Source of the DNA: Ricordea florida
Taxonomy: Eukaryota; Cnidaria; Anthozoa; Corallimorpharia; Ricordeidae
Length of the DNA stretch: 64,000 bases
Direction: 5' to 3'
NCBI GenBank assembly: GCA_949710005.1
Contig: OX453279.1
Span: forward strand, 13,318,578 to 13,382,577
In this document: positions 1 through 64,000 of the stretch, one piece after another
Position numbering within the stretch: position 1 is the stretch's first letter
Layout of the letters: each line of letters begins with the position of its first letter
The notes under the pieces: model-generated
Databases searched by the model: none
What the model was told of the DNA's origin: nothing
Seen by the model: the letters and a program-made list of their open reading frames with translations, nothing else
Translations under genes and position numbers: made by a program

Positions 1-3000
1 CATTTGTAGTAAGTGTAGGAAATTTAGTAGCTATAGTAAGTGTAGTATTTGTAGGAAGTATAGTAGCTGTAGTAAGTAACGTAGCTGTAGTAAGTGTCAT
101 AGCTGTAGTAAGTGTAGTAGCGCTTGTAAGTGTAGTAGCTTTTGTAAGTGTAGTAAGTGAAGTAGCTGTAGTAAGTCTAGTAGCTGTAGTAAGTAAGTGT
201 AGCAGCTGTGGTTAGTGAAGTAAGTGTAGTAACTTTAGTAAGTGTAGAACCTTTAGTAGCTGCAATAAGTGTAGTAAGTTTAGTAACTTAAGAAAGGGTA
301 GTAGCTGTAGTAAGAGTAGTAGCTGTAGTAAGTGTAGCAGCTGTAGTTAGTGTAGTAAGTTTAGTAGCTGTAGGAAGTGTAGTTGCTGTAGTAAAAGTAG
401 TAATTGTAGTAGCTGTAGTAAGTGTAGTAGCTGTAGTAAGTGTAATAAGTGTAGTAGCTGAAGAAAGTGTAGTAGCTGTAGTAAGTGTAGTAGCTGTAGT
501 AAGTGTAATAAGTGTAGTAGCTGAAGTACGTGAAGTAGATGTAGTAAGTGGATTAGCTGTAGTAAGTGTAGTAGCTCTAGTAAGTGTAGTAAGTGTAATA
601 GCTCAATGGAGTAAATGTTGTAGCTGTGGTAGGTGTAGTAAGGATAGTAGCTGTAGTAAGTGTCTTAACTGTCGTAAGAGTAATAGCTGCAGTAGGTGTA
701 GTAAGTGTAGTAGCTTAATGTAGTAAGTGTAGTAGCTGTAGTAAGTGTAGTAAATGCTGTAGCTGTAGTAAGTGTAGTACGTGTAGTAGCTGTAGTAAGT
801 GCAGTAGCTGTAGTAAGTATAGTACCTGTAGTTAATGTAGTAGCTGTTGTTACTGTAGTAAATGTAGTATCTGTAGTAAGTGTAGTAAGTGTAGTAGCTT
901 TAGTAAATCTAGTAGCTATAGTAAGTGTGGTAGCTGTAGTAAGTAGTGGTAGTAGGTGTAATAAGTGTAGAAGCTTTAGTACGTGTAGTAAGTGTAGTAG
1001 CTGTAGTAAGTGTAGTTAGTGTAGTTGCTGTAGTAATTGTAGTAAGTCTAGTAGCTGTACTAAATGTGGCAAGTTTAGTACCTTTAGTTATTGTAGTAGC
1101 GTTAGTCAGTGTAATAAGTTTAGTAGCTGCAGTAGCTGTAGTAAGTATAGCATCTGTAGGAGCGGTAGTAAGAGTAGCAGCTGTGTAGTTGCTGTAGTAA
1201 CTGTGGTACCTGCACTAAGTGTATTAAGTGTAGTAAGTTTAGTAATTGTAGAAACTTTAGTTGCTGCAATAAGTGTAGTAAGTTAAGTAACGAAAGAAAG
1301 CGTTTTAGGTGTAGTAAGAGTAGTAGCTGTAGTAAGTGTAGCTGCTGTATTTAGTGTAGTAAGTGTAGTAGATGTAGGAAGTGTAGCAGCTGTAGTATGT
1401 GTAGCAGCTGAAGTAAGTGTAGTAGGTGTAGTTACTGTAGTAAGTTAGTAGTTGTAGTAAGTGTAGTGCTGTAGTAAGTGTAGTAGATGTAGTAAGTGTA
1501 ATAACTGTAGTAGCTGTAGTAAGTGTAGTAGCTGTAGTAAGAGTAGTAGCTGTAGTAAGTGTAGTAGCTGTAGTAAGTGTACTAAGTTTAGTAGCTGGAG
1601 TAAGTGTAGTAAGTGTTGTAAGTGTAGTAAGTGTAGTAGCTGTAGTAAGTGTAGTAAGTATAGTAAGTGTAGTAGCTGTATTAAGTGTAGTATGTGTAGA
1701 AGCTGAAAAAAGTGTTAAGGCTGTAGTAAGAGTAGTAGCTTTAGTACGTGTAGCAGCTGTAGTTAAAGTAGTAAGTGTAGTAGCTGTAGAAAGTGTAGTA
1801 GCTGTAGTACTTGTTGTTGCTGTAGTGTAGTAAGTGTAGTAAGTTTAGTAGCTGTAGTTGCTGTAGTAAGTGTAGTAGCTGTAGTAGCCTTAGTAAGTGT
1901 ATTGGCTGTAGTAAGTGTAGTAGCTGTAGTAAGTGTATTAGCTGTAGTAAGTGTAGTACGTGTAATACCTCAATGGAGTAAATGTAGTATATGTAGTAAG
2001 TATAGTAAGTGTAGTATCTGTAGTAATTGTAGTAGCTGTAGTCAGTTTAGTAAGTGTAATAAGTTTAGTAGTAAGTTTACTAGCTTTAGTAGCTTTAGTA
2101 AGTATAGCACCTGTTGTAAGTGTAGTATGTGTAGTAGCTTTAGTAAGTGTAGTAGCTGTATTAAATGTGGTAAGTGTAGTAAGTGTAGTAATTGTTGTAA
2201 CTGAAATGAGTGTAGTAAATGTAGTAAGTATAGTAGCTGTTGTAAGTGTAGTAGATGTAGTAAGTGTAGTAAGTGTAGTAAGTTTTGAAGCTGTGATAAC
2301 TGTAGTAAGTGTAATAGATCTAGTAAGTGAAATAGCTGTAGTAAGTGTAGTAGCTGTTGTAACTGTAGTAAGTTTTGTCGCTTAATGTTATTAGTGTTTT
2401 AGCTGTAGTAAGAAGAGTCGCTGTAATAAATGTAGTATCCGTCGTAAGTGTAGTAGGTGTAGTAGCTGTAGTAAGTGTTGTCGCTGTAGTAACTGTAGTA
2501 GGTGTAGTAAATGTAGTAAGTGTGGTAAGTGTAGTAATTGTAGTAGCTGCAGTAAGTGTAGTAAATGTAGTAGCTGTACTAGGTGTAGTAGCATTAGTAA
2601 GTGTACTAGCTGTACTAACCGTAGTAAGTATAGTAAGTGCAGTAGCTGTAATAAGTGTAGTAACTGAAATAGATGTTGTAATTGTAGTAGATGTAGTAAG
2701 CGTAGAGCAGCAGTAAGTGTAGTAGCTGTACTAAGTGTTGTAAGTGTAGTAGCTGTAGTAATTGTAGTAAGTGTAGTAGCTGTAGTAAGTGTAGTAAGTG
2801 TAGTAGCTGTAGTAACTGTAGTAAGTCTAGTAATTGTCACAATGCAATAGTTGTAGTAAGTGTAGTAAGTGTAGTATCTGTAGTAACTGTAGTAGCTGTA
2901 GTAAGTGTAATAAGTGTAGCAAGTGTCGTAAGTGTAGTATCTCTAGTAACTGTAGTAAGTGTAATATCTGTAGTAGGTGTAGTAGGTGTAGTTGCTATAG

Positions 3001-6000
3001 TAAGTGTATTAGCACTAGTCAGTGTAGTAGCTGTAGTAAGTGTATTAGCTGTAGTAAGATTAGTAAGGGTAGTAGCTTTAGTAAGTGTAGTAATTGTAGT
3101 AGCTTTAGTAAGTAGAGTAGCTGTAGTAAGTATAGTAGCTGTAGTAAGTGTAGTAGCAGTAGTAAGTGAAGTAGCTGTAGTAGCTGTAGTAAGTGTAGTA
3201 AATGTAGTATCTGTAGTAAGTGTTGTTGGCGTAGTAAGTGTAGTAAGTGTAGTAGCTGTAGTAAGTGTAGTAAGTTTAATAGCTGTAGTAACTGTAGTAG
3301 CTCTGGTAAAAGTAGTAGCTGTAGCAAGTGTAGTAAGTGTAGTACCTTAAGTAAGTGTAGTAGCTGTAGTAAGTGTAGTAGCTGTAGTAAGTCTAGTAAC
3401 TGTAGTAGCTGTAGTAAATGTTGTAGCTGTAGTAGGTGTAGTAGGTGTAGTAGCTGTACTGGCTGTAGTAAGTTTAGTAAGTAAAGTAATGTAGTAGCTG
3501 TAGTAAGTGTAGTAAGTGTAGCAGGTGTTGCAACTGTAGCAACTGTAGTAAGTGTTGTATCTGTAGTAAGTTTAGTAAGTGTAGTAGCTGTAGTAAGTGT
3601 AGTAGCTGTAGTAAGTGTAGTAGCTGTAGTAAGATTAGTAAGTGTAGTAGCTTTAGTAAGTAGAGTAGCTGTAGTAAGTATAGTAGCTGTAGTAAGTGTA
3701 GTAGCAGTAGTAAGTGAAGTAGCTGTAGTAGCCGTAGTAAGTGTAGTAAGTGTAGTATCTGTAGTAAGTGTGGTTGGCGTAGTAATTGTAGTAAGTGTAG
3801 TAGCCGTAGTAAGTGTAGTAAGTGTAGTAGCTGTAGTAAATGTGGTAGCTCTAGTAAGTGTAGTAAGTGTAGTAGCTGTACTGGCTGTAGTAAGTTTAAT
3901 AAGTAAAGTAATGTAGTAGCTGTAGTAAGTGTAGTAAGTGTAGCAAGTGTAGCAACTGTAGCAACTGTAGTAAGTGTTGTATCTGTAGTAAAATTAGTAA
4001 GTAAAGTAATGTAGTAGCTGTAGTAAGTGTAGTAAGTGTAGCAAGTGTAGCAACTGTAGCAACTGTAGTAAGTGTAGTATCTGTAGTAACTGTAGTAAGT
4101 TTAGTGAGTGTAGTACTTGTAATGGCTGTAGTAAACATAGTAAGTGTAGTAAGTGTAGTATCTGTTGTAACTGAAGTAAGTGTAGTATCTGTAGTAAGTG
4201 TAGTAAGTGTAGTAGCTTTAGTAAGTGTAGTAGCTGTAGTAAGTGTAATAAGTGTAGTAAGTGTAGTAAAACTATAAGCTCTAGTAAGTGTAATATCTGT
4301 AGTAACTGTAGTAGCTGTAGTAAGTGTAATAAGTGTAGCAAGTGTCGTAAGTGTAGTATCTCTAGTAACTGTAGTAAGTGTAATATCTGTAGTAGGTGTA
4401 GTAGGTGTAGTTGCTATAGTAAGTGTATTAGCTGTAGTCAGTGTAGTAGCTGTAGTAAGTGTATTAGCTGTAGTAAGATTAGTAAGGGTAGTAGCTGTAG
4501 TAAGTGTAGTAATTGTAGTAGCTTTAGTAAGTAGAGTAGCTGTAGTAAGTATAGTAGCTGTAGTAAGTTTAGTAGCAGTAGTAAGTGAAGTAGCTGTAGT
4601 AGCTGTAGTAAGTGTAGTAAGTGTAGTATCTGTAGTAAGTGTTGTTGGCGTAGTAAGTGTAGTAAGTGTAGTAGCTGTAGTAAGTGTAGTAAGTGTAATA
4701 GCTGTAGTAACTGTAGTAGCTGTGGTAAATGTAGTAGCTGTAGCAAGTGTAGTAAGTGTAGTGCCTTTAGTAAGTGTAGTAGCTGTAGTAAGTGTAGTAG
4801 CTGTAGTAAGTGTAGTAAGTGAAGTAGCTGTAGTAAATGTGGTAGCTGTAGTAAGTGTAGTAAGTATTGTAGCTGTACTGGCTGTAGTAAGTTTAGTAAG
4901 TAAAGTAATGTAGCAGCTGTAGTAAGTGTAGTAAGTGTAGCAAGTGTAGCAACTGTAGCAACTGTAGTAAGTGTAGTATCTGTAGTAAGTTTAGTAAGTG
5001 TAGTAGCTGTAGTAAGTGTAGTAGCTTTAGTAAGTGTAGTAGCTTTAGTAAGTGTATTAGCTTTAGTAAGTGTAGTAGCTGTATATTAAGTGTAGTAAGT
5101 GTAGTAAGTGTAGTAAAACTATAAGCTCTAGTAAGTGTATTAGCTGTAGTAAGTGTAGTAGCTGTAGTAAGTGTTGTAGCTGCAGTAAGTATAGTAAGTG
5201 TAGTAGCAGTAGGATGTGTAGTAGCTGTAGTAAGTGCAGTAAGTGTAGTGGCTGTACAAAGTGTAGTAAGTTTAGTAGCTGTAGTAAGTGTAGTAAGTGT
5301 GGTAAGTGTAGTAGTCGTATTAGCTATAGTAAGTGAACCAAGTGTAGTAAGTGTACTAAGTGTAGTAAGTATAGTAGCTGTAGTAAGTGTAGTAGCTGCA
5401 GTAAGTGTAGTAGCTGCAGTAAGTGTAGTAAATGTAGTAGCTGTAGTAAGTGTAGTAGCTGTAATAAGTGTAGTAGCTGTAGTAGCTGTAGTAAGTGTAG
5501 TAGCTTTAGTAAGTGTAGTAGCTGTATATTAAGTGTAGTAAGTGTAGTAAAACTATGACTCTAGTAAGTGTATTAGCTGTAGTAAGTGTAGTAGCTGTAG
5601 TAAGTGTTGTGGCTGCAGTAAGTATAGTAAGTGTAGTAGCAGTAGGATGTGTAGTAGCTGTAGTAAGTGCAGTAAGTGTAGTGGCTGTACAAAGTGTAGT
5701 AAGTGTAGTAGCTGTAGTAAGTGTAGTAAGTGTGGTAAGTGTAGCTGTCGTATTAGCTGTAGTTAGTGTACCAAGTGTAGTAAGTGTACTAAGTGTAGTA
5801 AGTATAGTAGCTGTAGTAAGTGTAGTAGCTGCAGTAAGTGTAGTAGCTGCAGTAAGTGTAGTAAATGTAGTAGCTGTAGTAAGTGTAGTAGCTGTAGTAA
5901 GTGTAGTAGCTGCAGTAAGTGTAGTAGCTGTAGTAACTGTAGTAAGTGTAGTAAAAGTAGTAGCTGTAGTAAGTGTTGTAAGTGTAGTAAGTGTAGTAGC

Positions 6001-6181
6001 TGTAATAAGTGTAGTAACTGTAATAAATATTGTAATTGTAGTAGATGTAGTAAGCGTAGTAGCAGTAGTAAGTGTAGTAGCTTTAGTAGCTGTAGTAGCT
6101 GTAGTAAGTGTAGTAATTGTAGTAGCTGTAGTAAGTGTAGTATCTGTAGTAAGTGTAGTAGCTGTATTAAGTGTAGTAAGT
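1..6181 (+). repeat. Satellite A array, forward, copy 1
   Basis: This is a tandem array of triplet-structured 9-mers, GTAGTAAGT and GTAGTAGCT, mostly alternating as the 18-mer GTAGTAAGTGTAGTAGCT. Variant words mark higher-order repetition, for example TAAAACTATAAGCTC at 4267 and 5114 and TAAAACTATGACTC at 5548, or GATTAGTAAGGGTAG near 3057 and 4476. The plus strand is G/T/A rich with about one C per 18 bases. Open frames inside (VVSVVA, CSSCSK, LLHLLQ, TTATTL patterns) are artefacts of the unit. No gene, RNA gene or mobile element is visible in it. Confidence 0.95.
5114..5930 (+). repeat. About 434-bp tandem duplication within satellite A
   Basis: The block starting TAAAACTAT at 5114 recurs at 5548. 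Both copies continue with the same series of variant units (CTCTAGTAAGTGTATTAGC, then GCAGTAGGATGTGTAG, then GTGGCTGTACAAAGTG). This shows that A is amplified in blocks of hundreds of bases as well as by 9- and 18-bp steps. Block ends are approximate. Confidence 0.75.
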
Positions 6182-7318
6182 GGTGCATCAGAAAGAACGA
6201 AGTGGTCAGCAGAAGAGGCTGGAGAGCAAGGTGGTTGGACAATAACTACAAGTAATGGGTGGAAGATCCTTGGAAAGTGTAAGTTCATGCACACGTGGTG
6301 GAACCGTGACGTTTTCATAAACTGGAGGCTGCGTAACCTCTTGAGAAGGCGCAGAGACGTGCAGTGTCTGTTTGTAAAATAACAGGGTGTGCGTCATTAT
6401 CGGAGTCTTGTGGCAATAGTCTGTGAAGGCCACTAATTGGACCCTAGGGGAACTAAGCCAAACTGTCAAGGCCACTGGATAACATTTGGAGATAAGCACC
6501 TAGTAGACTTAGCGGCCAAACTGAGAGGCTTTTAGCTTCCGGAGCCCAGAAGAAATGTCCTCAATAACGTAGACCGTGAGGTATTTCTCACGAGCTTTCA
6601 AGCTCTTACTAAGTCGCCGGCAGAGACAGCAGCAGATTATATGTTGGTAAGGCATGAGCCGTAAAAACTATACAGCCTGGCGGAGGAGGCGAAGACCATG
6701 CGAGAAATTGCACCGGTGTGCAGGGCCAGTATCACGGGGTGATCATGATAGCGTTAAGAACAGGTGATTGGACTATGCTAACGCGAATGGCTGTTGCCTC
6801 GTTGCTCAGGACTGATGGGACTGTAAGGTCGCTGCTCTCATCAAAAGGCTGTCACCTTACACCGATATCTTCAGTGTCATCCATCACCATGCGTGACCGA
6901 GCCCAAGGTCGGCGGACATGGTTAGGTAGGTAATGGTAATCCACAGGTTGAGTGGTATGTGGGCGTCCAGCAATTTTGCAGAGGATGCAGGACGAGAGGG
7001 GACTGCATTCCACGTTGGCTCCAACCACTATTGGGATTTCGCCTTGCAGTGGTCCTCCCAATGCTCATAGCTTTGGTATCTTCAATGCAAAGTAACTCAT
7101 CGAGAGGAGATCCAAGTGTCTGGGAGATCTCATTTCATTTGGAGCCATATATTTTTCACTAAAAGAGGTAATCCTGGGTGTATCAACAGGAGTAGTAGGT
7201 ATTTTACAATCCTAGGACATTTACCAAGTCCTCGAAAAATCATCTTTTAAATCTTGTTCCAAAATCAGCAACACTTACCAATAAATCAAAATCCAATCCA
7301 TGTAAGCCTAACCCTCGG
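6182..7318. other. Non-satellite module M, copy 1
   Basis: About 1.14 kb of ordinary-complexity sequence joins the end of satellite A (AGTGGTGCATCAG) to the start of satellite B. Base composition is near balanced, unlike either satellite. I recognise no gene, tRNA, 5S rRNA or snRNA in it. Short open frames exist on both strands, for example 6206-6499 minus (97 codons) and 6852-7061 minus (69 codons). In the 6206-6499 frame, the four differences from copy 2 include three amino-acid changes, so I see no sign of coding constraint. It may be a degraded gene or transposon piece that became part of the amplified unit. The last 150 bases are a gradual transition into B-like words. Confidence 0.85.
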
Positions 7319-24773: not shown

Positions 24774-24785
24774 AAGTGTAGTAGC
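24766..24785. repeat. Hairpin centre of the A'/A inverted repeat, copy 1
   Basis: GCTACTAC, a 4-base spacer AAGT, and GTAGTAGC form a perfect stem at the point where A' turns into A. Pairing continues outward with few mismatches, since both flanks are satellite A in opposite orientation. The same centre occurs at 57752-57771 in copy 2. Confidence 0.9.
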
Positions 24786-36227: not shown

Positions 36228-36720
36228 AGTAGGAGTAGTAGCTGTAGTAAGTGTAGTAGCTGTAGTAAGTGTACTAAGTTTAGTAGCTGGAGTAAGTGTA
36301 GTAAGTGTTGTAAGTGTAGTAAGTGTAGTAGCTGTAGTAAGTGTAGTATGTGTAGAAGCTGAAAAAAGTGTAAAGGCTGTAGTAAGAGTAGTAGCTTTAG
36401 TACGTGTAGCAGCTGTAGTTAAAGTAGTAAGTGTAGTAGCTGTAGAAAGTGTAGTAGCTGTAGTACTTGTTGTGGCTGTAGTGTAGTAAGTGTAGTAAGT
36501 TTAGCTGTAGCAAGTGTAGTAGCTGTAGTAGGAGTAGTAGCTGTAGTAAGTGTAGTAGCTGTAGTAAGTGTACTAAGTTTAGTAGCTGGAGTAAGTGTAG
36601 TAAGTGTTGTAAGTGTAGTAAGTGTAGTAGCTGTAGTAAGTGTAGTATGTGTAGAAGCTGAAAAAAGTGTAAAGGCTGTAGTAAGAGTAGTAGCTTTAGT
36701 ACGTGTAGCAGCTGTAGTTA
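36228..36720 (+). repeat. About 300-bp tandem duplication within satellite A, copy 2
   Basis: The variant series beginning TAGGAGTAGTAGCTG, with GTACTAAGTTTAGTAGC and GCTGAAAAAAGTGTAAAGG, occurs twice in succession here. The matching part of copy 1 (about 1.53-1.75 kb) has it once, so the duplication followed the macro-repeat split or was lost in copy 1. Confidence 0.7.
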
Positions 36721-41640: not shown

Positions 41641-42777
41641 GGTGCATCAGAAAGAACGAAGTGGTCAGCAGAAGAGGCTGGAGAGCAAGGTGGTTGGACA
41701 ATAACTACAAGTAATGGGTGGAAGATCCTTGGAAAGTGTAAGTTCATGCACAGGTGGTGGAACCGTGAGGTTTTCATAAACTGGAGGCTGCGTAACCTCT
41801 TGAGAAGGCGCAGAGACGTGCAGTGTCTGTTTGTAAAATAACAGGGTGTGCGTCATTATCGGAGTCTTGTGGGAATAGTCTGTGAAGGCCACTAATTGGA
41901 CCCTAGGAGAACTAAGCCAAACTGTCAAGGCCACTGGATAACATTTGGAGATAAGCACCTAGTAGACTTAGCGGCCAAACTGAGAGGTTTTTAGCTTCCG
42001 GAGCCCAGAAGAAATGTCCTCAATAACGTAGACCGTGAGGTATTTCTCACGAGCTTTCAAGCTCTTACTAAGTCGCCGACAGACACAGCAGCAGATTATA
42101 TGTTGGTAAGGCATGAGCCGTAAAAACTATACAGCCTGGCGGAGGAGGCGAAGACCATGCGAGAAATTGCACCGGTGTGCAGGGCCAGTATCACGGGGTG
42201 ATCATGATAGTGTTAAGAACAGGTGATTGGACTATGCTAACGCGAATGGCTGTTGCCTCGTTGCTCAGGACTGATGGGACTGTAAGGTCGCTGCTCTCAT
42301 CAAAAGGCTGTCACCTTACACCGATATCTTCAGTGTCATCCATCACCATGCGTGACCGAGCCCAAGGTCGGCGGACATGGTGAGGTAGGTAATGGTAATC
42401 CACAGGTTGAGTGGTATGTGGGCGTCCAGCAATTTTGCAGAGGATGCAGGACGAGAGGGGACTGCATTCCACGTTGGCTCCAACCACTATTGGGATTTCG
42501 CCTTGGAGTGGTCCTCCCAATGCTCATAGCTTTGGTATCTTCAATGCAAAGTAACTCATCGAGAGGAGATCCAAGTGTCTGGGAGATCTCATTTCATTTG
42601 GAGCCATATATTTTTCACTAAAAGAGGTAATCCTGGGTGTATCAACAGGAGTAGTAGGTATTTTACAATCCTAGGACATTTACCAAGTCCTCGAAAAATC
42701 ATCTTTTAAATCTTGTTCCAAAATCAGCAACACTTACCAATAAATCAAAATCCAATCCATGTAAGCCTAACCCTCGG
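41641..42777. other. Non-satellite module M, copy 2
   Basis: This is the second copy of the module at 6182-7318, at a constant offset of 35,459. I count about ten substitutions by eye, including three C-to-G changes in the first 300 bases, giving about 99% identity. The 97-codon minus-strand frame persists at 41665-41958 with three residue changes. There is no recognisable gene. Confidence 0.85.
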
Positions 42778-51700: not shown

Positions 51701-54700
51701 GGATATCAGGTAAACCCATCAGCCAAATAGGTAGATACATACATACACTAATTAACTAAGCATATATGCTAATTAAGTACAAACACACCTTAATCAGGTA
51801 AGGTTATTATGCAATCAGGTAAGTAGATAGAACAATTAGGCAAATACATAGGGTAATCAGATAAATAGAGAAACTAATTAGGTAAATATATAGGCTTATC
51901 AAGTAAATAGACAAGCCAATAACCAAATGTATACGCTACTCAGATAAAAAATAAACTAATTATTTATATATATAGGCTTATCAGGTAGATAGATAGGCTA
52001 ATCAGATATGTAAATAGGCTACTTAGGCCCCGCTAACAGGTAATCAGGTAAATAGATAGGCTACTTAGGCAAAAAGGTAAGGTAATAAGAGAAATAGATA
52101 AACTAATTAGGTAAACATATACAGTAATCAAATAAGCATATATGCTAATCAAGTAGATACATAGGTTAATTAGGTAAAGTTATTATGCAATCAGTTAAAT
52201 AGATAGGCTAATTAATAAGAGACATTGCTTAATTAGATAGATAGATAAAGTAGTTAGATCAATATATAATCTAATCAGTTAAGGGAATCAGGGAATGAGG
52301 TAAGCATATCTGCTAATGATGTAAATACAAAGGCAAACTAGGTAAGCTCATCTGGCAAAAAAGCTAAATAAATAGGCTAATTAGGGAAATACATAGGCTA
52401 ATCAGATATATAGATAAACTAGTTAGGAAAATATATAATATAATCAGGTAAGTAGGCTAAATAGGTATATAAATGGGCCAATAAGGTAAACCCATCAGGC
52501 AATCCGGTAAATAGATAGGCTAATTAAGCATAGGCTTATAAGACATACGCTAATTAGATAAATAGATAAACTAATTAAATAAATATCTTATGTAATCAGG
52601 TAAATAGATAGGCTAAACAGGTATATAAATAGGCCAATCAGATAAATCCAACAGTCAAATAAATAGGTACATAGGCTAATAAATAAATACATAGTTTAAT
52701 CAAATAAGATATATGCTAATATAGTACATACATAGGCTAACTAGATAAACTATTCAGGCAATCAGAAGAATAGATAGACTAATGACGCAAATACATAGGC
52801 TAATTAGATGAATAGATAAACTAATTAGGTAAATATAAAGTGTAATCAGGGAGAAAGTTAGGCTAATAGGGAATATAAATGGGCCAATAAGGTAAACCAA
52901 TCAGGCAATTAGGTAAATAGATAGGCTAATTAGGCGAAGACATAGGCTAATCAGATAAATAGATAAAGTAATTAGGTAAATACATAGGCTAATCAGATAT
53001 ATAAATAGGCTTCCTAAATAAAACCCATCATTCAAATTGGTAAATAGATAAACTTATCGGGCAATCAGAAGAGTAGATAGGCTAATTACGCAAATACATA
53101 GGCTAATTAGTTGAATAGATAAACTAACTAGGAAAATATATAGTTTAATGAGGTAAATAGTTGGGACTCTCAGGTATATAATGGGGCCATTCAGGTAAAC
53201 ATATCAGGATATTAGGTAAATAGATAGGGTAATTAGACAGAGACATACCTTAATTAATTAACTAGATAGCAAATTACATAAATATATAATCTGATCACTT
53301 AAAAAGATAGTCTTAACAGGTATATAAATGGCCTTTCAGATAAACCAAACAGCCAAATAGGTAGATGCATAAGCTAAACAGGTAAATAGATACACTAATG
53401 AAATAAGAATACGTCCTACTCAAGTACATACATAGGTTACTTAGGAAATATGGTAAATAGATAGACCAAGTTAGTCAAATACATGGGCTAACCAGATAAA
53501 TAGACAAACTAATTAGGTAAATATAAGGGCTAATAAGGTAAATACATGGGCTAATTAGATAAAAAGATAAACTAATTAGGTAAATATAAAGTGTAATCAG
53601 GGAGAAAGTTAGGCTAATAGGGAATATAAATGGGCCAATAAGGTAAGCCAATCAGGCAATCAGATAAATAGATTAATTAATCAGGTAAATATATAGGCTA
53701 ATCAGATAAATACTTACGCTAACCAGGTATATAAAAGGCCCGATAACGTAAATAAATGAAATAATTAGGCAAAGACATGGCCTAATTAGATGAATAGATA
53801 AACTAACTAGATAAATATATAATCCACTGAGGTAAGGGGATACGTTAAATAGGTATATAAATAGACCAATCAGATAAGCCCAAAAGCTAAATAAATAAAT
53901 ACATAGGTTAATCCGGTAAATAAATAAAGAAATAAAATAAACATATAGGTTAATCAAGTACATAAATAGGCAAACTAGATAAACCCATCACGCAATCAGG
54001 TAAATAGATAGGCTAGTTAAGCAAATACATAGGCTCATTAAACAAATAGATAAACTAATTCGGGAAATATATAGTCTTATCAGGTAAATAGTTAGGCTAA
54101 TGAGTAATATCAATGGGCCAGTGAGTGAAACCCATCAGATAATCGGGTAGATAGATAGACTAAATTGGCAAAGACACAGGCTAATTAGATAAGCCAATGA
54201 GGGAGATATATAGTCTAATCAGGTAAATAGTTAGGCGAATCTGGTATATTATTGGGCAATTCAGGTAAGCCCATCAGACAATCAGGTAAACAGGTTAAAA
54301 AGGTACACTAATTAGGCAAAGACATGGCTAATTAAATACATAGATAAGCCAATTAGGAAAATATATAGTCTAATCAGGTGAATAGTTAAGCTAGAAATAG
54401 TTAGGCTAAAAATAGGTAGATACATAGGGTAATCTGGTAAGTAGATAGGCTAAATATAAGCATATATGCTTACTAAGTAATTACATAGGTTAATCAGGTA
54501 AAGTTATCAGGCATTTAATTAAATAGACAGGGAAATAGGCAAATGGATCGGTTAATTAGGTAAAAAGATAAACTAACAATGTAAATATATAGGCTAATCA
54601 GATATATAAATAGGCTTATTAAATAAAACCCATCAGGCAATAAGGTAAATAGATGGGCTAGTTATGCAACAACATAGACTAATCAGATAAATAGATAAAC

Positions 54701-56061
54701 GTATTAGATAAATATATAATCTAATTAGGTAAATAGGTAAGTTACGCCGGTCTGTAACTTGGCCAATCAGGTAAACCCGACAGCCAAATAAGAAAATACA
54801 TAGGCTAATGTGGTAAATAGATAGGCTAGTTAGGCAAAGACATAGGCTTATTAGATATATAGGTAAACTAATTAGAAAGGTATATAGTCTAATGAAGTGA
54901 ATAGTTAGGCTAAACATGTATATAAATAACCAATTCAAGTAAAGCCAATTAGGTGAACCCATCATACAATCGTGTAAATGGATAGACTAATTAGAAAAAG
55001 ACATAGGCTAATTAGATAATCCAATTAGGGAGATATATGGTGTAATTAGGTAAATAGTTAGGCGAATCAGGTATATCAATGGGCAACTCAGGTGAACCCA
55101 TCAGAAAATCAGGTAAACAGGTACACTAATTAGGCAAGGACATGGCTAATTAAATACATAGATAAGCCAATTAGGGAAATATATAGTTGAATCAGGTAAA
55201 TAGTCAGGCTAAAAAGATATATAAATAGGGCAATGAGGTAAACCCATAAGTCAAATAGGTAGATACATAGACCAATCAGGTAGATACAGACACTAATTAA
55301 CTAAGCATATATGCTAATTAAGTACAAACATAGCTTAATCAGGTAAATATATTAGGCAATCAGGTAAGTTGATAAAACAATTTGGCAAACACGAAGGGTA
55401 ATCAGATAAATAGATAATTAGTAATAACAATAGTAATTAGGTAAATACATAAGCTAATCAGATATATAAATAGGCTACCTAAAAAAATTATTAGGCAATT
55501 AGGTAAATAGATGGGCTAGTTAGGCCAGGACAGAGGCTAATCAGATGAATAGAGAAACTAATTAGGAAAATATATAGTCTAATCAGGTAAATAAATAGGT
55601 TAAACCTGTCTGTAACTAGGCCAATCAGTTAAACGAGACAGCCAAATAAGAAACTAGATAGGCTAATCAAGTGAATACATAGACTGATCAAATAAGGATA
55701 TATGGAAATTAAATATATACATATGTTCATTAGGTAAAGTCATCAGGTAATTAAATAAATAGATACGCCAATTCAGCAAATACATAAGCTAATCAATTAA
55801 ATAGATGAACTAATTAGGTAATATAGTTAGGTTAATATAATTAGGTAATATAGGCTAATCAGGTCAATACAGACACTAATTAACTAAGCATATATGCTAA
55901 TTAAGTACAAACATAGCTTAATCAGGTAAATATATTAGCCAATCAGGTAAGTTGATAAAACAATTTTACAAACACGAAGGGTAATAAGATAAATAGATAA
56001 TTAGTAATAATAATAGTAATTAGGTATATACATAAGCTAATCAGATATATAAATAGGCTTA
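42778..56061 (+). repeat. Satellite B array, copy 2
   Basis: About 13.3 kb of the same 21-bp-monomer satellite as 7319-23075. It has the same order of variant blocks but only one version of the 2,478-bp segment (about 47.48-49.96 kb). Small differences include an altered stretch at 43957-44000 (AAATGCGTCGGTTAAAATGC), where copy 1 has ATGGATCGGTTAATTAGG. No gene is seen. Confidence 0.95.
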
Positions 56062-57759
56062 ATACTGCACTTATTACAGCTACAACACTTACTACACTTA
56101 CTAATGCTACTACACTTACTACAGCTACTACAGATGCTAGACTTACTACAATTACTACAGATACTACACTTACTACAGTTACTAAAGATGCTAGACTTAC
56201 TACACTTACTACACTTAATACACTTACTAAAGTTACTACAGACGCTACACTTACTACTCTAACGACACTTGCTACAGCTACTACACTTACTAAAGCTACT
56301 ACACTTACTAAACGTACTACAGCTACTACACTTACTGCAACTACTACACTTACTACAGCTACTACACCTACTACAGCTACTACAGTTACTACACTTACTA
56401 CAGCTCCTACACTTACTACAGCTACTACACTTTTTACAGCTACTACACTTACTACAGATACTACATTTAACACAGTTACTACACTTACTACAGTTACTAC
56501 AATTACTACACTTACTAAAGCTGCTATACTTACTACAGCTACTATACTTACTACACTACTACAGCCTTTGCACTTACTACACTTACTACAGGTACTACAG
56601 CTGATACCCTTAATAGAGCTACTACACTTACTGCAGCTACTGCACTTACTATAGCTACTACACGTACTGCACGTATTACAGCTACTACACCTACTAAAGC
56701 CACTACACTTACTAAAGCTACGACACTTACTAAACTTGCTACAGCTACTACACTTACTACAGTTACTACGATTACTACACTTACTACATTTACTACAGCT
56801 ACTACACTTACTACACTTACTATAGCTTTTACACTTACTACACGTACTACTGCTAATACAGCTACTACACTTGCTACAGCTACTACACTTACGGCAGCTA
56901 AAAAACTCACTACAACTACTACACTTACTACACCTACTAGATCTATTAAACTTACTACACTTACTACAATTACTACACCGACTACAGCAAATACAATTAC
57001 TACACTTTCCACACTTGCTACACTTACTGCAGCTACTACACTTACTACAGCAACTACACTTACTACACTTACTACAGCTGCTACACTTTCTATTGCTACT
57101 ACACTTACTACACGTACTACAGCTACAACACTTACTACAGCTGCTACACTTACTACAGCTACTACTCTTACTACACTTACTACAGACACTACACTTACTA
57201 CACTTACTACACTGACTACCGCTACTACAACTACTACACTTACGACACTTACTACACTTACTAAAGCTACTAAACTTACTACACTTACTACAGCTACTAC
57301 TCTTACTACACCCTCTACACTTTCTACTGCTAGTACACTTACTACACTTACTACAGCTATAACGATTACTACAGCTAGCACACTTACTACACCTACTACC
57401 CTTACTACACTTACTCCAGACACTACACCTACAACAGTTACTAGACCTACAACAGTAACTACACCTACTACAGTTACTAGAGATACTACGCTTACTACAC
57501 TTAATGCACTTACTACATTTACTACACTTACTACAGTTGCTACAATTACTAGATTTACTAAACTTACTAAGGCTACTACACTTAATACACTTACTAGAGC
57601 TACTACACTTACTACAGCTAATACACTTACTACACTTACTACAGCTACTGCACTTACCACACTTACTACTGCTACTACACTTACTAATGCTACTACATTT
57701 ACTACAGCTACTACACTTACTACAGCTACTATATTTACTACAGTTACTGCAGCTACTAC
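56062..57759 (-). repeat. Satellite A array, inverted (A'), copy 2
   Basis: This is the counterpart of 23076-24773, at an offset of 32,986. It starts directly after the last satellite B monomer and turns to forward A at the hairpin near 57761. Confidence 0.95.
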
Positions 57760-57771
57760 AAGTGTAGTAGC
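57752..57771. repeat. Hairpin centre of the A'/A inverted repeat, copy 2
   Basis: The same stem GCTACTAC, spacer AAGT, and GTAGTAGC as at 24766-24785. Its identical sequence shows that the inversion preceded the macro-duplication. Confidence 0.9.
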
Positions 57772-60700
57772 TGTAGTAAGTGTAGTAGCTGTAGTAAGTG
57801 TAGTAGATGTACCAAGTGTAGTAGCTGTAGTAAAAAAAGTAAGATTAGTAGTTCAATGTGGTAAGTGTAGTAGCTTTAGTAAGTGTAGAGGTGTAGTAGC
57901 TTAAGTAAGTGCAGTAGCTGTAGTAAGTTTAGTAGCTGCAGTAAATGTAGTATCTGTAGTAATTGTAGTAAGTGTAGTAGCTGTAGTAAGTAAAGTGAGA
58001 GTAGTTGTTGTAGTAATTGTAGTAAGTGTTGTAATTGTAGTAGCTGTAGAAAGTATAATAAGTGTAGTAAGTGTAGTATCTGTAGTTACAGTTGTAAGTG
58101 TAGTATTTGTAGTAAGTGTAGGAAGTTTAGTAGCTATAGTATGTGTAGTATTTGTAGAAAGTGTAGTAGCTGTAGTAAGTAAAGTAGCTGTAGAAAGTGT
58201 AGTAATTGTACTAGCTGTGGTCAGTGTAATCAGTGTAGTAAGTTTAGTATGTGCAGTAAGTCTGGTTGCATTCGTAAGTGTTGTAGCTGTAGTTAGTGTA
58301 GTAGTTGTATTAGCTGTAGTAAGTGTAGTAGTTGTAGTAAGTGTTGTTGCTAAAGTAAGTGTGGTATGTGTATTAACTGTAGTAAGTGTAGTAGCTGTAG
58401 TCGTTGTACTAAGTGTAGTAGCTGTAGTAAGTAAGTGTAGCAGCTGTAGTCAGTGTAGTAAGTGTGGTAATTGTAGTAGCTGTAGAAAGTATAATAAGTT
58501 AAGTAAGTGTAGTATCTGTACTTACTGTTGTAAGTGTAGTATTTGTAGTAAGTGTTGGAAGTTTAGTAGCTATAGTAAATGTAGTACTTGTAGGAAGTGT
58601 AATAGCTGTAGTAAGTAAAGTTGCTGTAGTAAGTGTAGTAGCTGTAGTAAGTGTAGTAGCGCTTGTAAGTGTAGTAGCGTTTGTAAGTGTAGTAGCTTTT
58701 GTAAGTGTAGTAAGTGAAGTAGCTGTAGTAAGTCTAGTTGCTGTAGTAAGTAGGTGTAGCAGCTGTAGTCAGTGTAGTAAATGTAGTAACTTTAGTAAGT
58801 GTAGAACCATTAGTAGCTGCAATAAATGTAGTAAATGTAGTTACTGAAGAAAGGGTAGTAGCAGCTGTAGCAGCTGTAGTTAGTGGAGTAAGTTTAGTAG
58901 CTGTAAGAAGTGTAGTAGCATTAGTAAAAGTAGTAATTGTAGTAGCTGTAGTAAGTGTATTAGCTGTAGTAAGTGTTATAAGTGTAGTAGCTGAAGTAAG
59001 TGTAGTAGCTGTAGCAAGTGTAGTAGCTGTAGTAAGTGTAATAAGTGTAGTAGCTGAAATAAGTGCAGTAGATGTAGTAAGTGGATTAGCTGTAAGAAGT
59101 GTAGTAGCTCTAGTAAGTGTAGTAAGTGTAATAGCTCAATGGAGTAAATGTAGTAGCTGTGGTACGTGTAGTAAGTATAGTAGCTGTAGTAAGAGTCTTA
59201 GCTGTCGTAAGAGTAGTAGCTGCAGTAGGTGTAGTAAGTGTAGTAGCTTAATGTAGTAAGTGTAGTAGCTGTAGTAAGTGTAGTAAATGCAGTAGCAGTA
59301 GTAACTGTAGTACGTGTAGTAGCTGTAGTAAGTGGAGTAGCTGTAGTAAGTATAGTAGCTGTATTTAATGTAGTAGCTGTAGTTACTTTAGTAAGTGTTG
59401 TATCTGTAGTAAGTGTAGTAAGTTTAGTAGCTTTAGTCAGTCTAGTAGCTGTAGTAAGCGTGGTAGCTGTAGTAAGTAAAGTAGGTGTAGAAAGAGTAGC
59501 AGCTTTAGTAAGTGTAGGAAGTGTAGTAGCTGTAGTAAATGTAGTTAGTGTAGTAGCTGTAGTAATTGTAGTAAGTCTAGTAGCTGTACTAAATGTGGCA
59601 AGTTTAGTACGTTTAGTTATTGTAGTAGCGTTAGTCAGTGTAGTAAGTGGAGTAAATTTAGTAAGTGTAATAAGTTTAGTAGCTGCAGTAGCTGTAGTAG
59701 CTGTGAAGATGCTGTAGTAACTGTGGTACCTGCACTAAATGTAGTAAGTGTAGTAGCTGTAGTAAGTGTAGTAAGTGTAGTAGCTGGAGTAAGTGTAGTA
59801 AGTGTTGTAAGAGTAGTAAGTGTAATAGCTGTAGTAAGTGTAGTAAGTGTAGTAGCTGTATTAAGTTTAGTAAGTGTAGAAGCTGAAGAAAGTGTAGTGG
59901 CTGTAGTATGTTAAGTAGCTCTAGTAAAAGTAGTAATTGTAGTAGCTGTAGTAGGAGTAGTACCTGTAGTAAGTGTAGTAAGAGTAGTAGCAATAGTAAG
60001 TGTAGTACCTGTAGTAAGTGTAGTAGCTGTAGTACTTGTTGTGGCTGTAGTCAGTTTAGTAAATGTAGTAAGTTTAGTAGCTGTAGTAGCTGTAGTAAGT
60101 GTAGTACCTGTAGTAGCCTTAGTAAGTGTATTGGCTGTAGTAAGTGTAGTAAGTGGAATAGATGTAGTAAGTGTAGTAGCTGTAGTAAGTGTATTAGCTG
60201 TAGTAAGTATAGTACGTGTAATAGCTCAATGGAGTAAATGTAGTGTCTGTGGTAAGTGTGGTAAGTGTAGTAGCTGTAGTAATTGTAGTAGCTGTAGTCA
60301 GTTTAGTAAGTGTAATAAGTTTAGTAGTAAGTTTACTAGCTGTAGTAGCTGTAGAAGTATAGTAGCTGTTGTAAGTGTAGTAGCTCTAGTAAGTGTAGTA
60401 GCTGTATTAAATGTAGTAAGTGTAGTAAGTGTAGTAATTGTTGTAACTGAAGTTAGTGTAGTAAATGTAGTAAGTGTTGTTGCTGTAGTAAGTGTATTAG
60501 CTGTAGTAAGTATAGTACGTGTAATAGCTCAATGGAGTAAATGTAGTATCTGTGGTAAGTGTGGTAAGTGTAGTAGCTGTAGTAATTGTAATAGCTGTAG
60601 TCAGTTTAGTAAGTGTAATAAGTTTAGTAGTAAGTTTACTAGCTGTAGTAGCTGTAAAAGTATAGTAGCTGTTGTTAGTGTAGTAAGTGTAGTAGCTGTA

Positions 60701-61786
60701 GTAAGTGTAGTAGCTGTTGTAAGTGTAGTAGATGTAGTAAGTGTAATAAATGTAGTAAGTTTTATAGCTGTGATAAGTGTAGTAAGTGTAATAGATGTAG
60801 TAAGTGAAGTAGCTGTAGTAAGTGTAGTAGCTGTAGTAAGTGTAGTAAGTTTTTTAGCTTAATGTTGTTAGTGTTTTAGCTGTAGTAAGTAGATTCGCTG
60901 TAGTAAATGTAGTTGTCGTCGTAAGTGTAGTAGGTGTAGTAGCTGTAGTAAGTGTAGTAGCTGTAGTAACTGTAGTAGCTGTAGTAAATGTAGTAAATGT
61001 AGTAAGTGTAGTAGCTGTAGTAAGTGTAGTAGTCGTATTAAGTAAAGTAGCTTTAGTAAGTGTAGTAGCTGTAGTAAGTATAGTAAGTGTAGTTGTTCAA
61101 TGTAGTAAGTGTAGTAGCTGTAGTAAGTGTATTAAGTGTAGTAGCTGCAGTAAGTGTAGTAAGTGTTGTAGCTCTAGTAACTGTAGTAAGTTTAGTTACT
61201 GTAGTAAGTGTAGTATCTGTAGAAAGTGTAGTTTGTGTTGTAGCTGTAGCAAGTGTAGCTGCTGTAGGAAGTGTAGTAAGTGTAGTATCTGTAGTACGTT
61301 AAGTAAGTGTAGTAGCTGAAGTAAGTGTAGTAAGTGTTGTAGCTGTAGTAAGTGTAGTAAATGTAGTAGCTCTAGTAAGTGTAGTAAGTGTAGTTACTGT
61401 AGATGGTGTAGTAGCTTTAAGAGCTGTAGTAAGTGTAGTAGCATTAGTAAGTGTCGTAGCTGTAGTAAGTGTAATAAGCGTAGTAACTTTAGTAAGTGCA
61501 GTAGCTGCTGTAAGTGTAGTTATTGTAGTAGCTGTATTAAGTGAAGTATCTGTAGTAAGTGTAGTAGCTGTAGTAAGTGTAGTAAGTGTAGTACTTGTAG
61601 TGGCTGTAGTAAACATACTAAGTGTAGTAAGTGTAGTAGCTGTAGTAACTGTAGTAGCTGTAGTAAGTTTAGTAGCTGTAGTAAGTGTTGTAGCTGTAGT
61701 AAGTGTAGTAACTGTAGTAGCTGTAGTAAATGTAATAGCTATGTAAGTGTGGTATCTGTAGTAAGTCTAGTAGCTGTAGTAAATGT
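57764..61786 (+). repeat. Satellite A array, forward, between hairpin and LINE (copy 2)
   Basis: About 4.0 kb of forward satellite A, some 350 bp longer than the equivalent stretch of copy 1. Most of the excess is a 303-bp tandem duplication near 60.2-60.8 kb. No gene is visible. Confidence 0.95.
60191..60800 (+). repeat. 303-bp tandem duplication within satellite A, copy 2 only
   Basis: The marker GCTCAATGGAGTAAATG occurs at 60223 and again at 60526, 303 bp apart, with the same following variants (GTGGTAAGTGTGGTAAG, then TAGTAAGTTTACTAGC). Copy 1 has a single version near 27240. Because 303 is a multiple of 3, the satellite frames stay open across it and produce a 273-codon open frame that is not a gene. 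Confidence 0.8.
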
Positions 61787-62470
61787 ATCACTGAAACAAA
61801 TTATTTAGCTTTTTGCGGGCTGTTATCCTTTTCAAAACAAAAAGCTATAGTACGCTTATGCAACAATACAAATATACAATACGAAAGCTTTTATACCAAA
61901 TTTATGAAAGCAAGTAAACCAAGCAGACAGGCCTATAAAAAAATAATTGGTCTTAAACAAAGGTGTCCAACTAATAGTCAAGAAAAATTGGCTAGGGATT
62001 GTGCATGTAAGGCCCATGAACCAATAGACTAGGGTGTTGCGTACCAGCTATCTTTCCAGTGTACAAGATCTACAAAACTAATTGTATTTCAATTTAAATT
62101 GCTGCATAGACGATTGGCAACTAATGACTTTCGTAAAAAAGTAGGAATAAAAGATAACGATCTTTGTAGTTTCTGCAAAATTGAGAAAGAAAGCCTAATT
62201 CATCTTTTCTGGTCCTGTAGAGTTGTCTCTACTTTCTGGCAAAGCTTTAAGAAGCTTCTTGTAAGTCAAAATCTTGCCTTGAGAACATACAACCTTTCTT
62301 TAAATACAGTTTTAGGTCTAAGGCCAGATACATCAAAGAATAAACAGAAACTTAATTTTAATCTTCTTGTAGCGAGATATTATATATGCTCCTGTAGGAC
62401 ACGCAACTTGTCCCCTGAAGTGAGACATTTCTCTGTCTTTCTGGCGTGTTACAACAGCCTCAAAACTTGA
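61787..62470 (+). pseudogene. Non-LTR retrotransposon ORF2, C-terminal fragment, in-frame stop (copy 2)
   Basis: This is the second copy of the LINE fragment: 228 codons in a single frame ending at TGA 62468-62470. It keeps the 20 bp that are deleted in copy 1, so the two halves stay in frame, but codon 82 (62030-62032) is TAG. It carries the same landmarks in order: FCGLLSVS, ASKPSRQAYKKI, QLSFQCTRSTKL, FKLLHRRLATNDF, then the C-x2-C-x8-H-x4-C knuckle. In full-length LINEs this region lies after the reverse transcriptase domain and is thought to help bind template RNA. With no polymerase core and an internal stop, this copy is dead. It shares the 5' truncation point and satellite flank with the copy at 28453, so both come from one insertion later copied with the macro-repeat. 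Confidence 0.88.
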
Positions 62471-62736
62471 GCAGCGTCAAATGATAATCTTTAGAATTCT
62501 AAGAGGGTGATAATTAAAAATTGAACGTATATACCAACAAGCAACTGCTAAAAAAGAAAGTAAACGAACAAACAAAGAAAACCCCAAGGCTAACACGTGT
62601 ATTGTATGTAAGTAGTAACTAGCTTTTTAAATTAATTAATTAATAAAATGTAACATATTGTAGTGTAAGTAATATCAATAGGTGTAGTAAGTAATTGTAT
62701 TGTATTGTTGAGACAAATAAAGATTGAAAAAAAAAA
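62471..62736 (+). mobile_element. LINE 3' untranslated region and poly(A) tail, copy 2
   Basis: Equivalent to 29117-29387, ending in a 10-base A tract at 62727-62736. AATAAA lies at 62716-62721. The ATTA microsatellite is one unit shorter than in copy 1 and is followed by AAAATG instead of ACAATG. Confidence 0.85.
62716..62721 (+). promoter_or_regulatory. Polyadenylation signal AATAAA of the LINE, copy 2
   Basis: The same canonical hexamer just upstream of the A tract as in copy 1. Confidence 0.7.
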
Positions 62737-63877
62737 GTGTAGTAAGCGTAGTAGTTGTAGTAAGTGTAGTTTGTGTAGTAAGTGTAGTAAGTGTAGTAGC
62801 TGTAGTAAGTTTAGTTAATGTAGTAGCTGTAGTAAGTGTACTATCCTTGGAAAGTGTAGAAGCTCTGGCAAGTGTAGAAAGTGTAGTACCTTTGGTAAAT
62901 GTAGTAGCTGTAGTAAGTCTAGTAGCTGTAGTAAGTGTAGTAAGTTTAGTAGCTGTAGTAAGTGTAGCATGTGTAGAAGCTGTAGTAAGTGTAGTAGCTG
63001 TAGTAAGTCTAGTAGCTGTAGTAAGTGTAGTAGCTGTGGTAAGTGTAGTAGCTGTAGCAAGTGTAGTAAGTGTAGTAACTTTAGTAAGTGCAGTAGCTGC
63101 TGTAAGTGTAGTTATTGTAGTAGCTGTATTAAGTGAAGTATCTGTAGTAAGTGTAGTAGCTGTAGTAAGTGTAGTAAGTGTAGTACTTGTAGTGGCTGTA
63201 GTAAACATAGTAAGTGTAGTAAGTGTAGTAGTTGTAGTAACTGTAGTAGCTGTAGTAACTGTAGTAGCTGTAGTAAGAGTCGTAGCTGTAGTAAGTGTAG
63301 TAGCTCTATTAAGTATAGTTAATGTAGTAGCTGTAGTAAGTGTACTATCCTTGGAAAGTGTAGTAGCTCTGGCAAGTTTAGTAAGTGTAGCACCTTAGGT
63401 AAATATAGTAGCTGTAGTAAGTGTAGTAGCGTTAGTAAGTGTAGTAAGTTTAGTAGCTGTAGTAAGTGTAGCATCTGTAGGAGCTGTAGTAAGTGTAGTA
63501 GCTGTAGTAAGTCTAGTAGCTGTAGTAAGTGTAGTAGCCGTGGTAAGTGTTGTATCTGTAGCAAGTGTAGTAAGTGTAGTAACTTTATTAAGTGCAGTAG
63601 GTGCTGTAAGAGTAGTTATTGTAGTAGCTGTATTAAGTAAAGTATCTGTAGTAAGTGTAGTAGCTGTAGTAAGTGTAATACTTGTAGTGGCTGTAGTAAA
63701 CATAGTAAGTGTAGTAAGTGTAGTAAGTGTAGTAGCTGTAGAAACTGTAGTAGCTGTAGTAAGTGTAGTAACTGTAAGTGTAATATCTATGTAAGTGTAG
63801 TATCTGTAGTAAGTCTAGTAGCTGTAGTAAATGTAGTAAGTTTAGTAAATGTAGTAATTCTAGTAATTAGTAGTAGT
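62737..63877 (+). repeat. Short satellite A stretch between LINE copy 2 and M copy 3
   Basis: Only about 1.14 kb of forward satellite A separates this LINE from the next M module, against 12.25 kb at the equivalent place after LINE copy 1. The stretch follows copy 1 unit for unit up to TAATTCTAGTAATT (about 63870, equal to about 30548) and then passes through TAGTAGT into M. Confidence 0.92.
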
Positions 63878-64000
63878 GGTGCATCAGAAAGAACGAAGTG
63901 GTCAGCAGAAGAGGCTGGAGAGCAAGGTGGTTGGACAATAACTACAAGTAATGGGTGGAAGATCCTTGGAAGGTGTAAGTTCATGCACAGGTGGTGGAAC
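63878..64000. other. Non-satellite module M, copy 3, cut by the window end
   Basis: The first 123 bases of M are present, starting GGTGCATCAGAAAGAACG. It shares CACAGGTGG with copy 2 (copy 1 has CACACGTGG) and has one private change (GGAAGGTGTAAG for GGAAAGTGTAAG). It shows that the macro-repeat continues beyond the window. Confidence 0.88.

What the first reader, a model, noticed from the sequence alone, without database searches (positions are those of the whole stretch)
1..64000. A composite 35-kb macro-repeat built from two unrelated satellites, a unique module and a dead LINE
Seen: the order A-M-B-A'-A-L-A is repeated, with M-to-M distances of 35,459 and 22,237 bp and about 99% identity in the non-satellite parts. 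Known: higher-order arrays usually repeat one satellite family on a scale of hundreds to thousands of bases. A unit of this size with two interleaved families, an inverted block and a trapped LINE is unusual. Inference: it is amplified as a unit, as in a heterochromatic block, knob, B or sex chromosome, or centromere-flanking region.
Basis: partly seen in the sequence, partly recalled or inferred. Interest (0 to 1): 0.7.

Follow-up and report, generated by a model that had tools for sequence, protein, structure and literature searches.

The report
Composite satellite macro-repeats at chromosome middles
A long stretch of DNA in the middle of a chromosome is built of units of 20 to 40 thousand letters that each combine two different repeats, a spacer and often a dead jumping gene; related units sit in the middle of several other chromosomes, so this may be how this organism builds the regions around its centromeres.

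Summary
In detail: order A-M-B-A'-A-L-A, M-to-M distances exactly 35,459 and 22,237 bp, M copies 99% alike. The window is C8:13,318,578-13,382,577 of a 538-Mb eukaryotic assembly with 16 chromosome-scale contigs.

The array reaches far beyond the window: at least 19 M copies over 522 kb, 99% alike in the core, 89-93% at the outer edges. Core units are 21-39 kb (one is 56 kb, with a Polinton inserted). Unit junctions recur at the same base. Similarity between units is mosaic, with nested recent duplications, as unequal exchange or conversion gives.

It is not unique to C8. A B word occurs 4,913 times; its 81 exact copies form one mid-chromosome cluster on each of seven chromosomes. The A|M junction word occurs 95 times on five chromosomes, alternating strand without exception on C5 (24) and C7 (18). 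The B|A' junction is C8-only (10).

Best reading: chromosome-specific composite megasatellites marking (peri)centromeric heterochromatin. Structure and amplification are shown; centromere function is inferred (about 0.5). Human megasatellites are precedents, so this is a new variant of a known kind. Assembly artefact is unlikely, but a 5-kb N run makes copy numbers provisional.

The parts
1..6183 (+). A satellite array (9/18-bp units, strong G-over-C strand bias), end of the previous unit
   Evidence: TRF, composition, autocorrelation
6184..7300 (+). M1, 1,117-bp non-satellite module; A|M junction at 6183/6184
   Evidence: M begins at the same base, with A on its left, in 7 other C8 copies (in some of them the A flank differs); M family on C8 and, diverged, on C2, C9, C11, C15, C16
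7301..23077 (+). B satellite block 1 (21-bp period, 54% match at that period) with nested duplications (offsets 2,478 and 2,038 bp, 94-95%)
23078..24774 (-). A' block 1: A satellite in inverted orientation; B|A' junction at about 23077/23078
   Evidence: junction word found 10 times, all on C8
24775..28453 (+). A array 2
28454..29385 (+). L1: 3' fragment of a LINE (zf-RVT domain, poly-A tail) inserted in A
   Evidence: Pfam PF13966 E 2.2e-9; same 5' junction in 6 C8 copies, same 3' flank in the 5 complete ones; dispersed family elsewhere
29386..41642 (+). A array 3 (12.3 kb)
41643..42759 (+). M2
   Evidence: 99.1% to M1
42760..56061 (+). B satellite block 2
56062..57760 (-). A' block 2 (inverted A)
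57761..61787 (+). A array 4
61788..62735 (+). L2: LINE fragment at the homologous site
62736..63879 (+). A array 5, shortened to 1.1 kb (about 11 kb shorter than A array 3); its match to A array 3 ends within about 10 bp of M
63880..64000 (+). M3, first 121 bp (complete outside the window: C8:13382457-13383573)

Best explanation
A chromosome-specific composite megasatellite (a macro higher-order repeat) in mid-chromosome, probably (peri)centromeric, heterochromatin. The unit is M-B-A'-A, with L in many copies; core units are 21-39 kb, and one is 56 kb because a 16.5-kb Polinton sits in it. Shown: (1) the unit is inherited as a block; (2) it is repeated in tandem, and units are mosaics of one another; (3) the core is homogenised and the edge copies are diverged; (4) blocks with the same A, B and/or M parts lie in the middle of other chromosomes, with junction patterns that differ between chromosomes. 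Inferred: unequal crossing over, conversion or break-induced replication between long satellite tracts drives expansion, contraction and unit-length changes; parts pass now and then between chromosomes; the site persists because it lies in or beside the centromere.
For: Block map of 260 kb shows M-B-A'-A(-L-A) repeating seven to eight times. B|A' junction at the same base in 7 of 7 units, A'|A turn in 7 of 7. LINE 5' junction the same in 6 of 6 and 3' flank in 5 of 5 complete copies, substitutions 0.1-1.3%. 19 M copies on C8 over 522 kb; identity to M1 falls with distance from the core (Spearman -0.90 without M1; 8 of 8 other core copies 99%, outer edges 89-93%). Nearest neighbour changes along the unit: unit 2 resembles unit 1 in A' but units 3 and 4 in the next A. 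Units 3 and 4 are 99.91-99.96% alike over 20.9 kb of aligned sequence, nearly all B, and B of unit 4 holds an 8,268-bp duplication. B word: 4,913 matches, control 0; 81 of 81 exact ones in one mid-chromosome cluster on each of C2, C5, C7, C8, C9, C15, C16. A|M junction word: 95 matches with up to 3 mismatches, control 0, on C5, C7, C8, C9, C16 at 0.41-0.58 of chromosome length. B|A' junction: 10 of 10 on C8. The LINE, as a dispersed control, is near the middle in 9 of 34 places outside the array, 6.4 expected.
Against: No CENP-A, FISH, methylation or read data. A also forms isolated arrays far from the middle (for example C2 35.3 Mb, C4 1.1 and 30.9 Mb, C10 4.3 Mb), and the C3 A cluster is at 0.64. 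C1, C10, C13 and C14 were not shown to have a block: the lists are truncated or only partly scored. On C3, C4, C6 and C12 only A was seen. Full M was scored on neither C5 nor C7 (40 of 140 candidates scored), so beyond the junction word their units may differ. One M place on C2 lies at 0.33. The 8e-6 figure for mid-chromosome placement uses a limit chosen after seeing the data. Strand alternation was not seen on C8 or C16.
Confidence: 0.7

Rival explanations
1. Interstitial heterochromatin without centromere function: satellite-rich segments that accumulate in low-recombination mid-chromosome regions and amplify neutrally by unequal exchange. (Shares the structural part of the best explanation, so the two confidences overlap.)
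For: A has non-central arrays; no functional data; a homogenised core with diverged edges can arise in any tandem array. Samples beside the block hold TE genes.
Against: One compact cluster near the middle for exact B words on 7 of 7 chromosomes that have them, and the same A|M junction word on five chromosomes.
Confidence: 0.35
2. Assembly artefact: false duplication or collapse-and-repeat of one locus.
For: A 5,000-N run lies in the array, directly before the window. Units 3 and 4 are 99.9% identical in B. No read depth available.
Against: 19 graded M copies, distinct unit lengths, a 16.5-kb insertion present in unit 3 and absent from unit 4, with a matching empty site, and the same junction word in blocks on four other chromosomes.
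Confidence: 0.06
3. Spread by a mobile element or by circular DNA: M or A is part of an element whose end is the A|M boundary, and units were added by insertion or rolling-circle reintegration.
For: The A|M word recurs on five chromosomes with perfect strand alternation on C5 and C7. In C8 two different A contexts meet M within about 10 bp of the same base. M0 starts at the same base beside non-satellite DNA.
Against: No coding capacity seen in M (longest ATG frame 64 aa in 8 copies; no Rfam match to E 1; no Pfam match above cut-off). On C8 the units sit head to tail in one block. Terminal repeats or target duplications at M were not looked for.
Confidence: 0.12
4. M is a functional gene or RNA, and the array is a gene cluster with satellite spacers, like rDNA.
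For: M is 99% alike in the core.
Against: M (0.6% mean pairwise difference) is no more conserved than the adjacent B (0.5%) in 7 units. No long ATG frame, no RNA family in M, no tRNA in the window.
Confidence: 0.03

Closest known systems
Human megasatellites, above all the ~6-kb ACRO array at 4p11 (Warburton et al. 2008, PMC2588610; abstract and passages seen)
   Same: Tandem unit that combines a satellite block, LINE and other TE pieces and non-transposon DNA, with an inversion in the array; expansion presumed by unequal crossing over; relatives on several chromosomes
   Different: Units in the rows and passages I saw are mostly 1.5-12 kb (one two-copy array has a 21.3-kb unit); here core units are 21-39 kb, with two unrelated satellites per unit and related blocks near the middle of several chromosomes
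Alpha-satellite higher-order repeats and the layered-expansion picture of centromeres (search listing; two passages of PMC10910784; otherwise recalled)
   Same: Chromosome-specific unit variants of a shared family; homogenised core with diverged edges; TE insertions
   Different: There one ~171-bp family and HOR units of kilobases (recalled); here two families plus spacer M, and tens of kilobases. CENP-A not tested here
Tandem composite repeats of ape sex chromosomes (PMC11168930; passages seen)
   Same: Tandem composite repeats found by self dot plot
   Different: Their unit make-up and lengths were not in the passages I saw; no sequence was compared
rDNA-type arrays (recalled)
   Same: Unit of tens of kilobases with repeat-rich spacer, concerted evolution
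   Different: No RNA family in M

Membership tests
Megasatellite / composite tandem repeat | Unit above 2 kb repeated in tandem | tested here: met
   core M-to-M spacings 20.9-39.1 kb and one of 56.0 kb; 19 M copies in one block
Megasatellite / composite tandem repeat | Units carry the same pattern of TE pieces and/or satellites | tested here: met
   block map and shared junctions; L not found in units 5 and 6
Megasatellite / composite tandem repeat | Copy number variable between individuals | not testable with these tools
   one assembly, no reads
Centromeric satellite with chromosome-specific higher-order units | One compact block per chromosome | tested here: inconclusive
   A, B or M cluster at 0.33-0.64 of length on 12 of 16 chromosomes (C2-C9, C11, C12, C15, C16; only A seen on C3, C4, C6, C12); four not shown, lists truncated or partly scored
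Centromeric satellite with chromosome-specific higher-order units | Unit variants specific to chromosomes | tested here: met
   B|A' junction only on C8; strand pattern of A|M differs between chromosomes
Centromeric satellite with chromosome-specific higher-order units | Homogenised core, diverged edges | tested here: met
   C8 only
Centromeric satellite with chromosome-specific higher-order units | CENP-A (CENH3) chromatin | not testable with these tools
   no ChIP data
Non-LTR retrotransposon (L) | zf-RVT domain and poly-A 3' end | tested here: met
Non-LTR retrotransposon (L) | Intact reverse transcriptase | tested here: not met
   0.93-kb 3' fragment; its 167-aa frame gave only zf-RVT
Polinton/Maverick (insert in unit 3, outside the window) | Integrase, A32-type ATPase, long terminal inverted repeats, short target duplication | tested here: met
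   rve E 1.8e-9, Pox_A32 E 1.3e-11; TIR about 0.4 kb at 86%, 5-bp target duplication with empty site in unit 4
Polinton/Maverick (insert in unit 3, outside the window) | Protein-primed DNA polymerase B and capsid genes | tested here: inconclusive
   1,462-aa frame present, no Pfam match for the 1,244 aa scanned; Capsid_N below cut-off

The most novel reading that the evidence does not exclude
The centromeres of this organism are built of composite higher-order units of tens of kilobases (two unrelated satellites, an inverted satellite block and a spacer). Each chromosome has its own version, several share one A|M boundary, and that boundary acts as a preferred exchange point. On C5 and C7 the boundary alternates strand without exception, as palindrome-like unit pairs. 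That would be a centromere architecture about ten times coarser than classical higher-order repeats.
Probability: 0.3. Interest if true: 0.8.

Novelty: new variant of a known kind. Interest (0 to 1): 0.58.

Why it matters
If these blocks are centromeric, they show higher-order repeat evolution on the scale of tens of kilobases with mixed satellite families. The rules known from alpha satellite (homogenised core, diverged edges, chromosome-specific units) would then not depend on one small monomer. The C8-only B|A' junction and the shared A|M junction are ready probes for FISH and read-based copy counting.

Tried and rejected
M as gene or RNA: no Rfam match up to E 1, no Pfam match above cut-off, longest ATG frame 64 aa in the 8 copies checked, no extra conservation over B. 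Excess divergence of A before M (6.6%) came mostly from one unit with a different A flank and is not a hotspot. Long open frames in A and A' (up to 633 aa) are what a stop-poor 9-bp repeat gives in several frames; rejected as genes by inference. A|M as the breakpoint of the C8 tandem duplication was my reading; one search shows the junction word on five chromosomes, so it is probably older and I dropped that. A clean empty LINE site in units 5 and 6 was sought and not found. Polinton enrichment at the satellite block was considered and dropped: the 150 scored ATPase matches are spread over all 16 chromosomes. CENP-B-like box and TTAGGG repeats: none in the window. A borne by one dispersed element: flanks of the A arrays on C3 and C12 are unrelated to each other and to the array in the stretches held. 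Two B words gave 0 matches, because those exact words do not occur. The long B query was scored for 1 of 267 candidates and says nothing on distribution. PMC9005458 (coral karyotype) was seen as outline and abstract only and not used. The organism was not identified; an animal, perhaps a cnidarian, is a guess from recall.

Full report
Setting. The window is C8:13,318,578-13,382,577 of G000, 537.8 Mb in 48 contigs. Sixteen contigs of 24.7-48.6 Mb hold 99.8% of the bases. C8 is 32.7 Mb, so the window lies at 41% of it.

Observation. Self-comparison and block mapping confirm the order A-M-B-A'-A-L-A and both M-to-M distances, 35,459 and 22,237 bp. A is a 9/18-bp satellite, B a degenerate 21-bp satellite, with no similarity between them. 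A' is A in inverted orientation, 75-76% alike to its neighbour. L is a LINE 3' fragment with a zf-RVT domain.

Beyond the window. I fetched 200 kb around it, 4 kb of which overlaps the window, and joined it with the window to 260 kb. It contains a 5,000-N run at 13,313,578-13,318,577, directly before the window, most likely an assembly gap; the tool also shows withheld stretches as N, so I cannot be certain. In these 260 kb the order M-B-A'-A, with L in five units, repeats seven to eight times. In 7 of 7 units the B|A' junction lies at the same base, and the A'|A turn is present in all 7. In 6 of 6 L copies the 5' junction is the same, and in 5 of 5 complete ones the 3' flank is the same; substitutions between L copies are 0.1-1.3%. 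The LINE therefore most likely landed once and was copied with the unit. Genome-wide it is a dispersed family: 40 matches, 40 of 55 candidates scored, six of them in the C8 array.

Extent on C8. A search with M gave 49 rows (40 of 140 candidates scored, so a lower bound). Twenty rows are C8, amounting to 19 M copies from 13,231,625 to 13,753,807. The eight copies besides M1 between 13.32 and 13.58 Mb score 99%; the two next to that core score 96% (one of them, M0, in two pieces of 91 and 96%), and the eight outermost 89-93%. Identity against distance from the core gives Spearman -0.90 without M1; since identity is measured to a core copy, this shows that the core is homogenised, not the age of each edge copy. 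Core M-to-M spacings are 35.5, 22.2, 56.0, 39.1, 24.6, 23.9, 27.4, 24.7 and 20.9 kb; the 56-kb one holds a 16.5-kb Polinton. Edge spacings run from 6.2 to 47.9 kb. Samples of 1-1.5 kb found B at 13.20 (inverted), 13.25, 13.625, 13.655, 13.67, 13.69, 13.72 and 13.74 Mb, and none at or below 13.15 or at or above 13.76 Mb; samples in between at 13.22, 13.23, 13.24, 13.26, 13.615, 13.635 and 13.645 Mb were not B.

How it evolves. The closest relative of a unit changes along its length: unit 2 pairs with unit 1 in A' (0.5%) but with units 3 and 4 in the following A (0.2-0.4%); unit 0 is identical to units 5 and 6 over one 700-bp stretch and closest to unit 3 in another. Units 3 and 4 are 99.91% and 99.96% alike over two aligned stretches of 10.5 and 10.4 kb, nearly all B, and unit 4 holds an 8,268-bp duplication inside B. 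M and the adjacent B differ about equally between copies (0.6% and 0.5%), so M shows no extra constraint. This is what unequal crossing over or conversion in an active array gives; the exact pathway is inferred.

Other chromosomes. The B 28-mer has 4,913 matches with up to 3 mismatches and 0 in the control. All 81 exact matches fall in one cluster on each of C2, C5, C7, C8, C9, C15 and C16, centred at 0.41-0.58 of chromosome length; the placement probability of 8e-6 uses a limit set after seeing the data. Repeated offsets such as 21,456 bp on C16 (5 pairs), 24,580 bp on C15 (3 pairs) and 60,446 bp on C9 (3 pairs) point to macro-repeats there too, and a 623-bp spacing recurs on five chromosomes, so B segments seem to be shared between chromosomes. 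The exact A 45-mer has 186 matches, control 0; the 100 listed (C2 to C10) include clusters on C3 to C9 at 0.41-0.64 of length and also isolated arrays elsewhere. M relatives (main pieces 77-95%) lie on C2, C9, C11, C15 and C16, at 0.33-0.50 of length. Together 12 of 16 chromosomes show a cluster of A, B or M between 0.33 and 0.64 of length; on C3, C4, C6 and C12 only A was seen. C1, C10, C13 and C14 were not shown to have one, and the lists are incomplete.

Junctions. The B|A' word is found 10 times (9 exact, 1 with one mismatch), all on C8, control 0. The A|M word is found 95 times with up to 3 mismatches, control 0: C5 24, C7 18, C8 10, C9 30, C16 13. On C5 and C7 its strand alternates without exception (23 of 23 and 17 of 17 steps), on C9 in 27 of 29; on C8 all 10 are +, and C16 is mixed (5 of 12). 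So the composite plan is shared in part and each chromosome has its own form, as in classical higher-order repeats. Whether full M follows each word on C5 and C7 was not established. In C8 unit 2, A is about 11 kb shorter than in unit 1 and its match ends within about 10 bp of M; and M0 starts at the same base beside non-satellite DNA. I regard the boundary as a possible exchange hotspot, not as shown.

Comparison. The closest described kind is the megasatellite: the human ACRO array has ~6-kb units with satellite blocks, TE pieces and an inversion, and expansion by unequal crossing over is presumed for such families (PMC2588610, abstract and passages). Composite repeats in ape sex chromosomes are similar in kind (PMC11168930, passages). 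The homogenised core with diverged edges matches the layered-expansion picture (PMC10910784, two passages). Unit size, two satellites per unit and recurrence on several chromosomes are the differences.

Verdict. Centromere function and true copy number remain open.

Noticed in passing
C8:13394631-13411158 (loci L015-L017), outside the window: About 16.5-kb Polinton/Maverick-like insertion in B of unit 3, with integrase and A32-type ATPase genes, terminal inverted repeats of about 0.4 kb and a 5-bp target duplication; unit 4 shows the empty site.
   Followed up: partly
genome-wide, query L016:3145-3786: The ATPase of that element has 5,039 first-look candidates; all 150 that were scored are 96-100% identical with open frames, on all 16 chromosomes. 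This suggests a very large, young Polinton expansion.
   Followed up: no
C8:13313578-13318577, directly before window position 1: A run of 5,000 N inside the array, cutting an L copy after 198 bp.
   Followed up: partly
C5:20.50-20.82 Mb and C7:14.46-15.25 Mb: The A|M junction word alternates strand without exception (24 and 18 copies), mostly at 18-33 kb same-strand spacing, unlike C8, where all copies face one way.
   Followed up: partly
C8:13281700-13286900 (L010): A third, diverged tandem repeat (weak period near 233 bp, BLAST copies 65-81% alike) next to M0 at the left side of the array; by eye a similar repeat was sampled at 13.26 Mb.
   Followed up: partly
L009:5413-7248, C8:13275413-13277248: 612-aa open frame between B stretches, no Pfam match; it reminds me of a Penelope-like reverse transcriptase, from recall only.
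   Followed up: partly
C2:35.252 Mb, C4:1.09 and 30.95 Mb, C5:7.02 Mb, C6:11.56 and 24.15 Mb, C10:4.297 Mb: Isolated A-satellite matches away from the chromosome middle; those on C2, C6 (24.15) and C10 are dense and regular.
   Followed up: no
window 62736-63879: In unit 2 the A array is about 11 kb shorter, and its match to unit 1 ends within about 10 bp of M, in the last A repeat.
   Followed up: partly
window, A arrays: A has a very strong strand bias, GC skew about 0.6 with G on the + strand.
   Followed up: no
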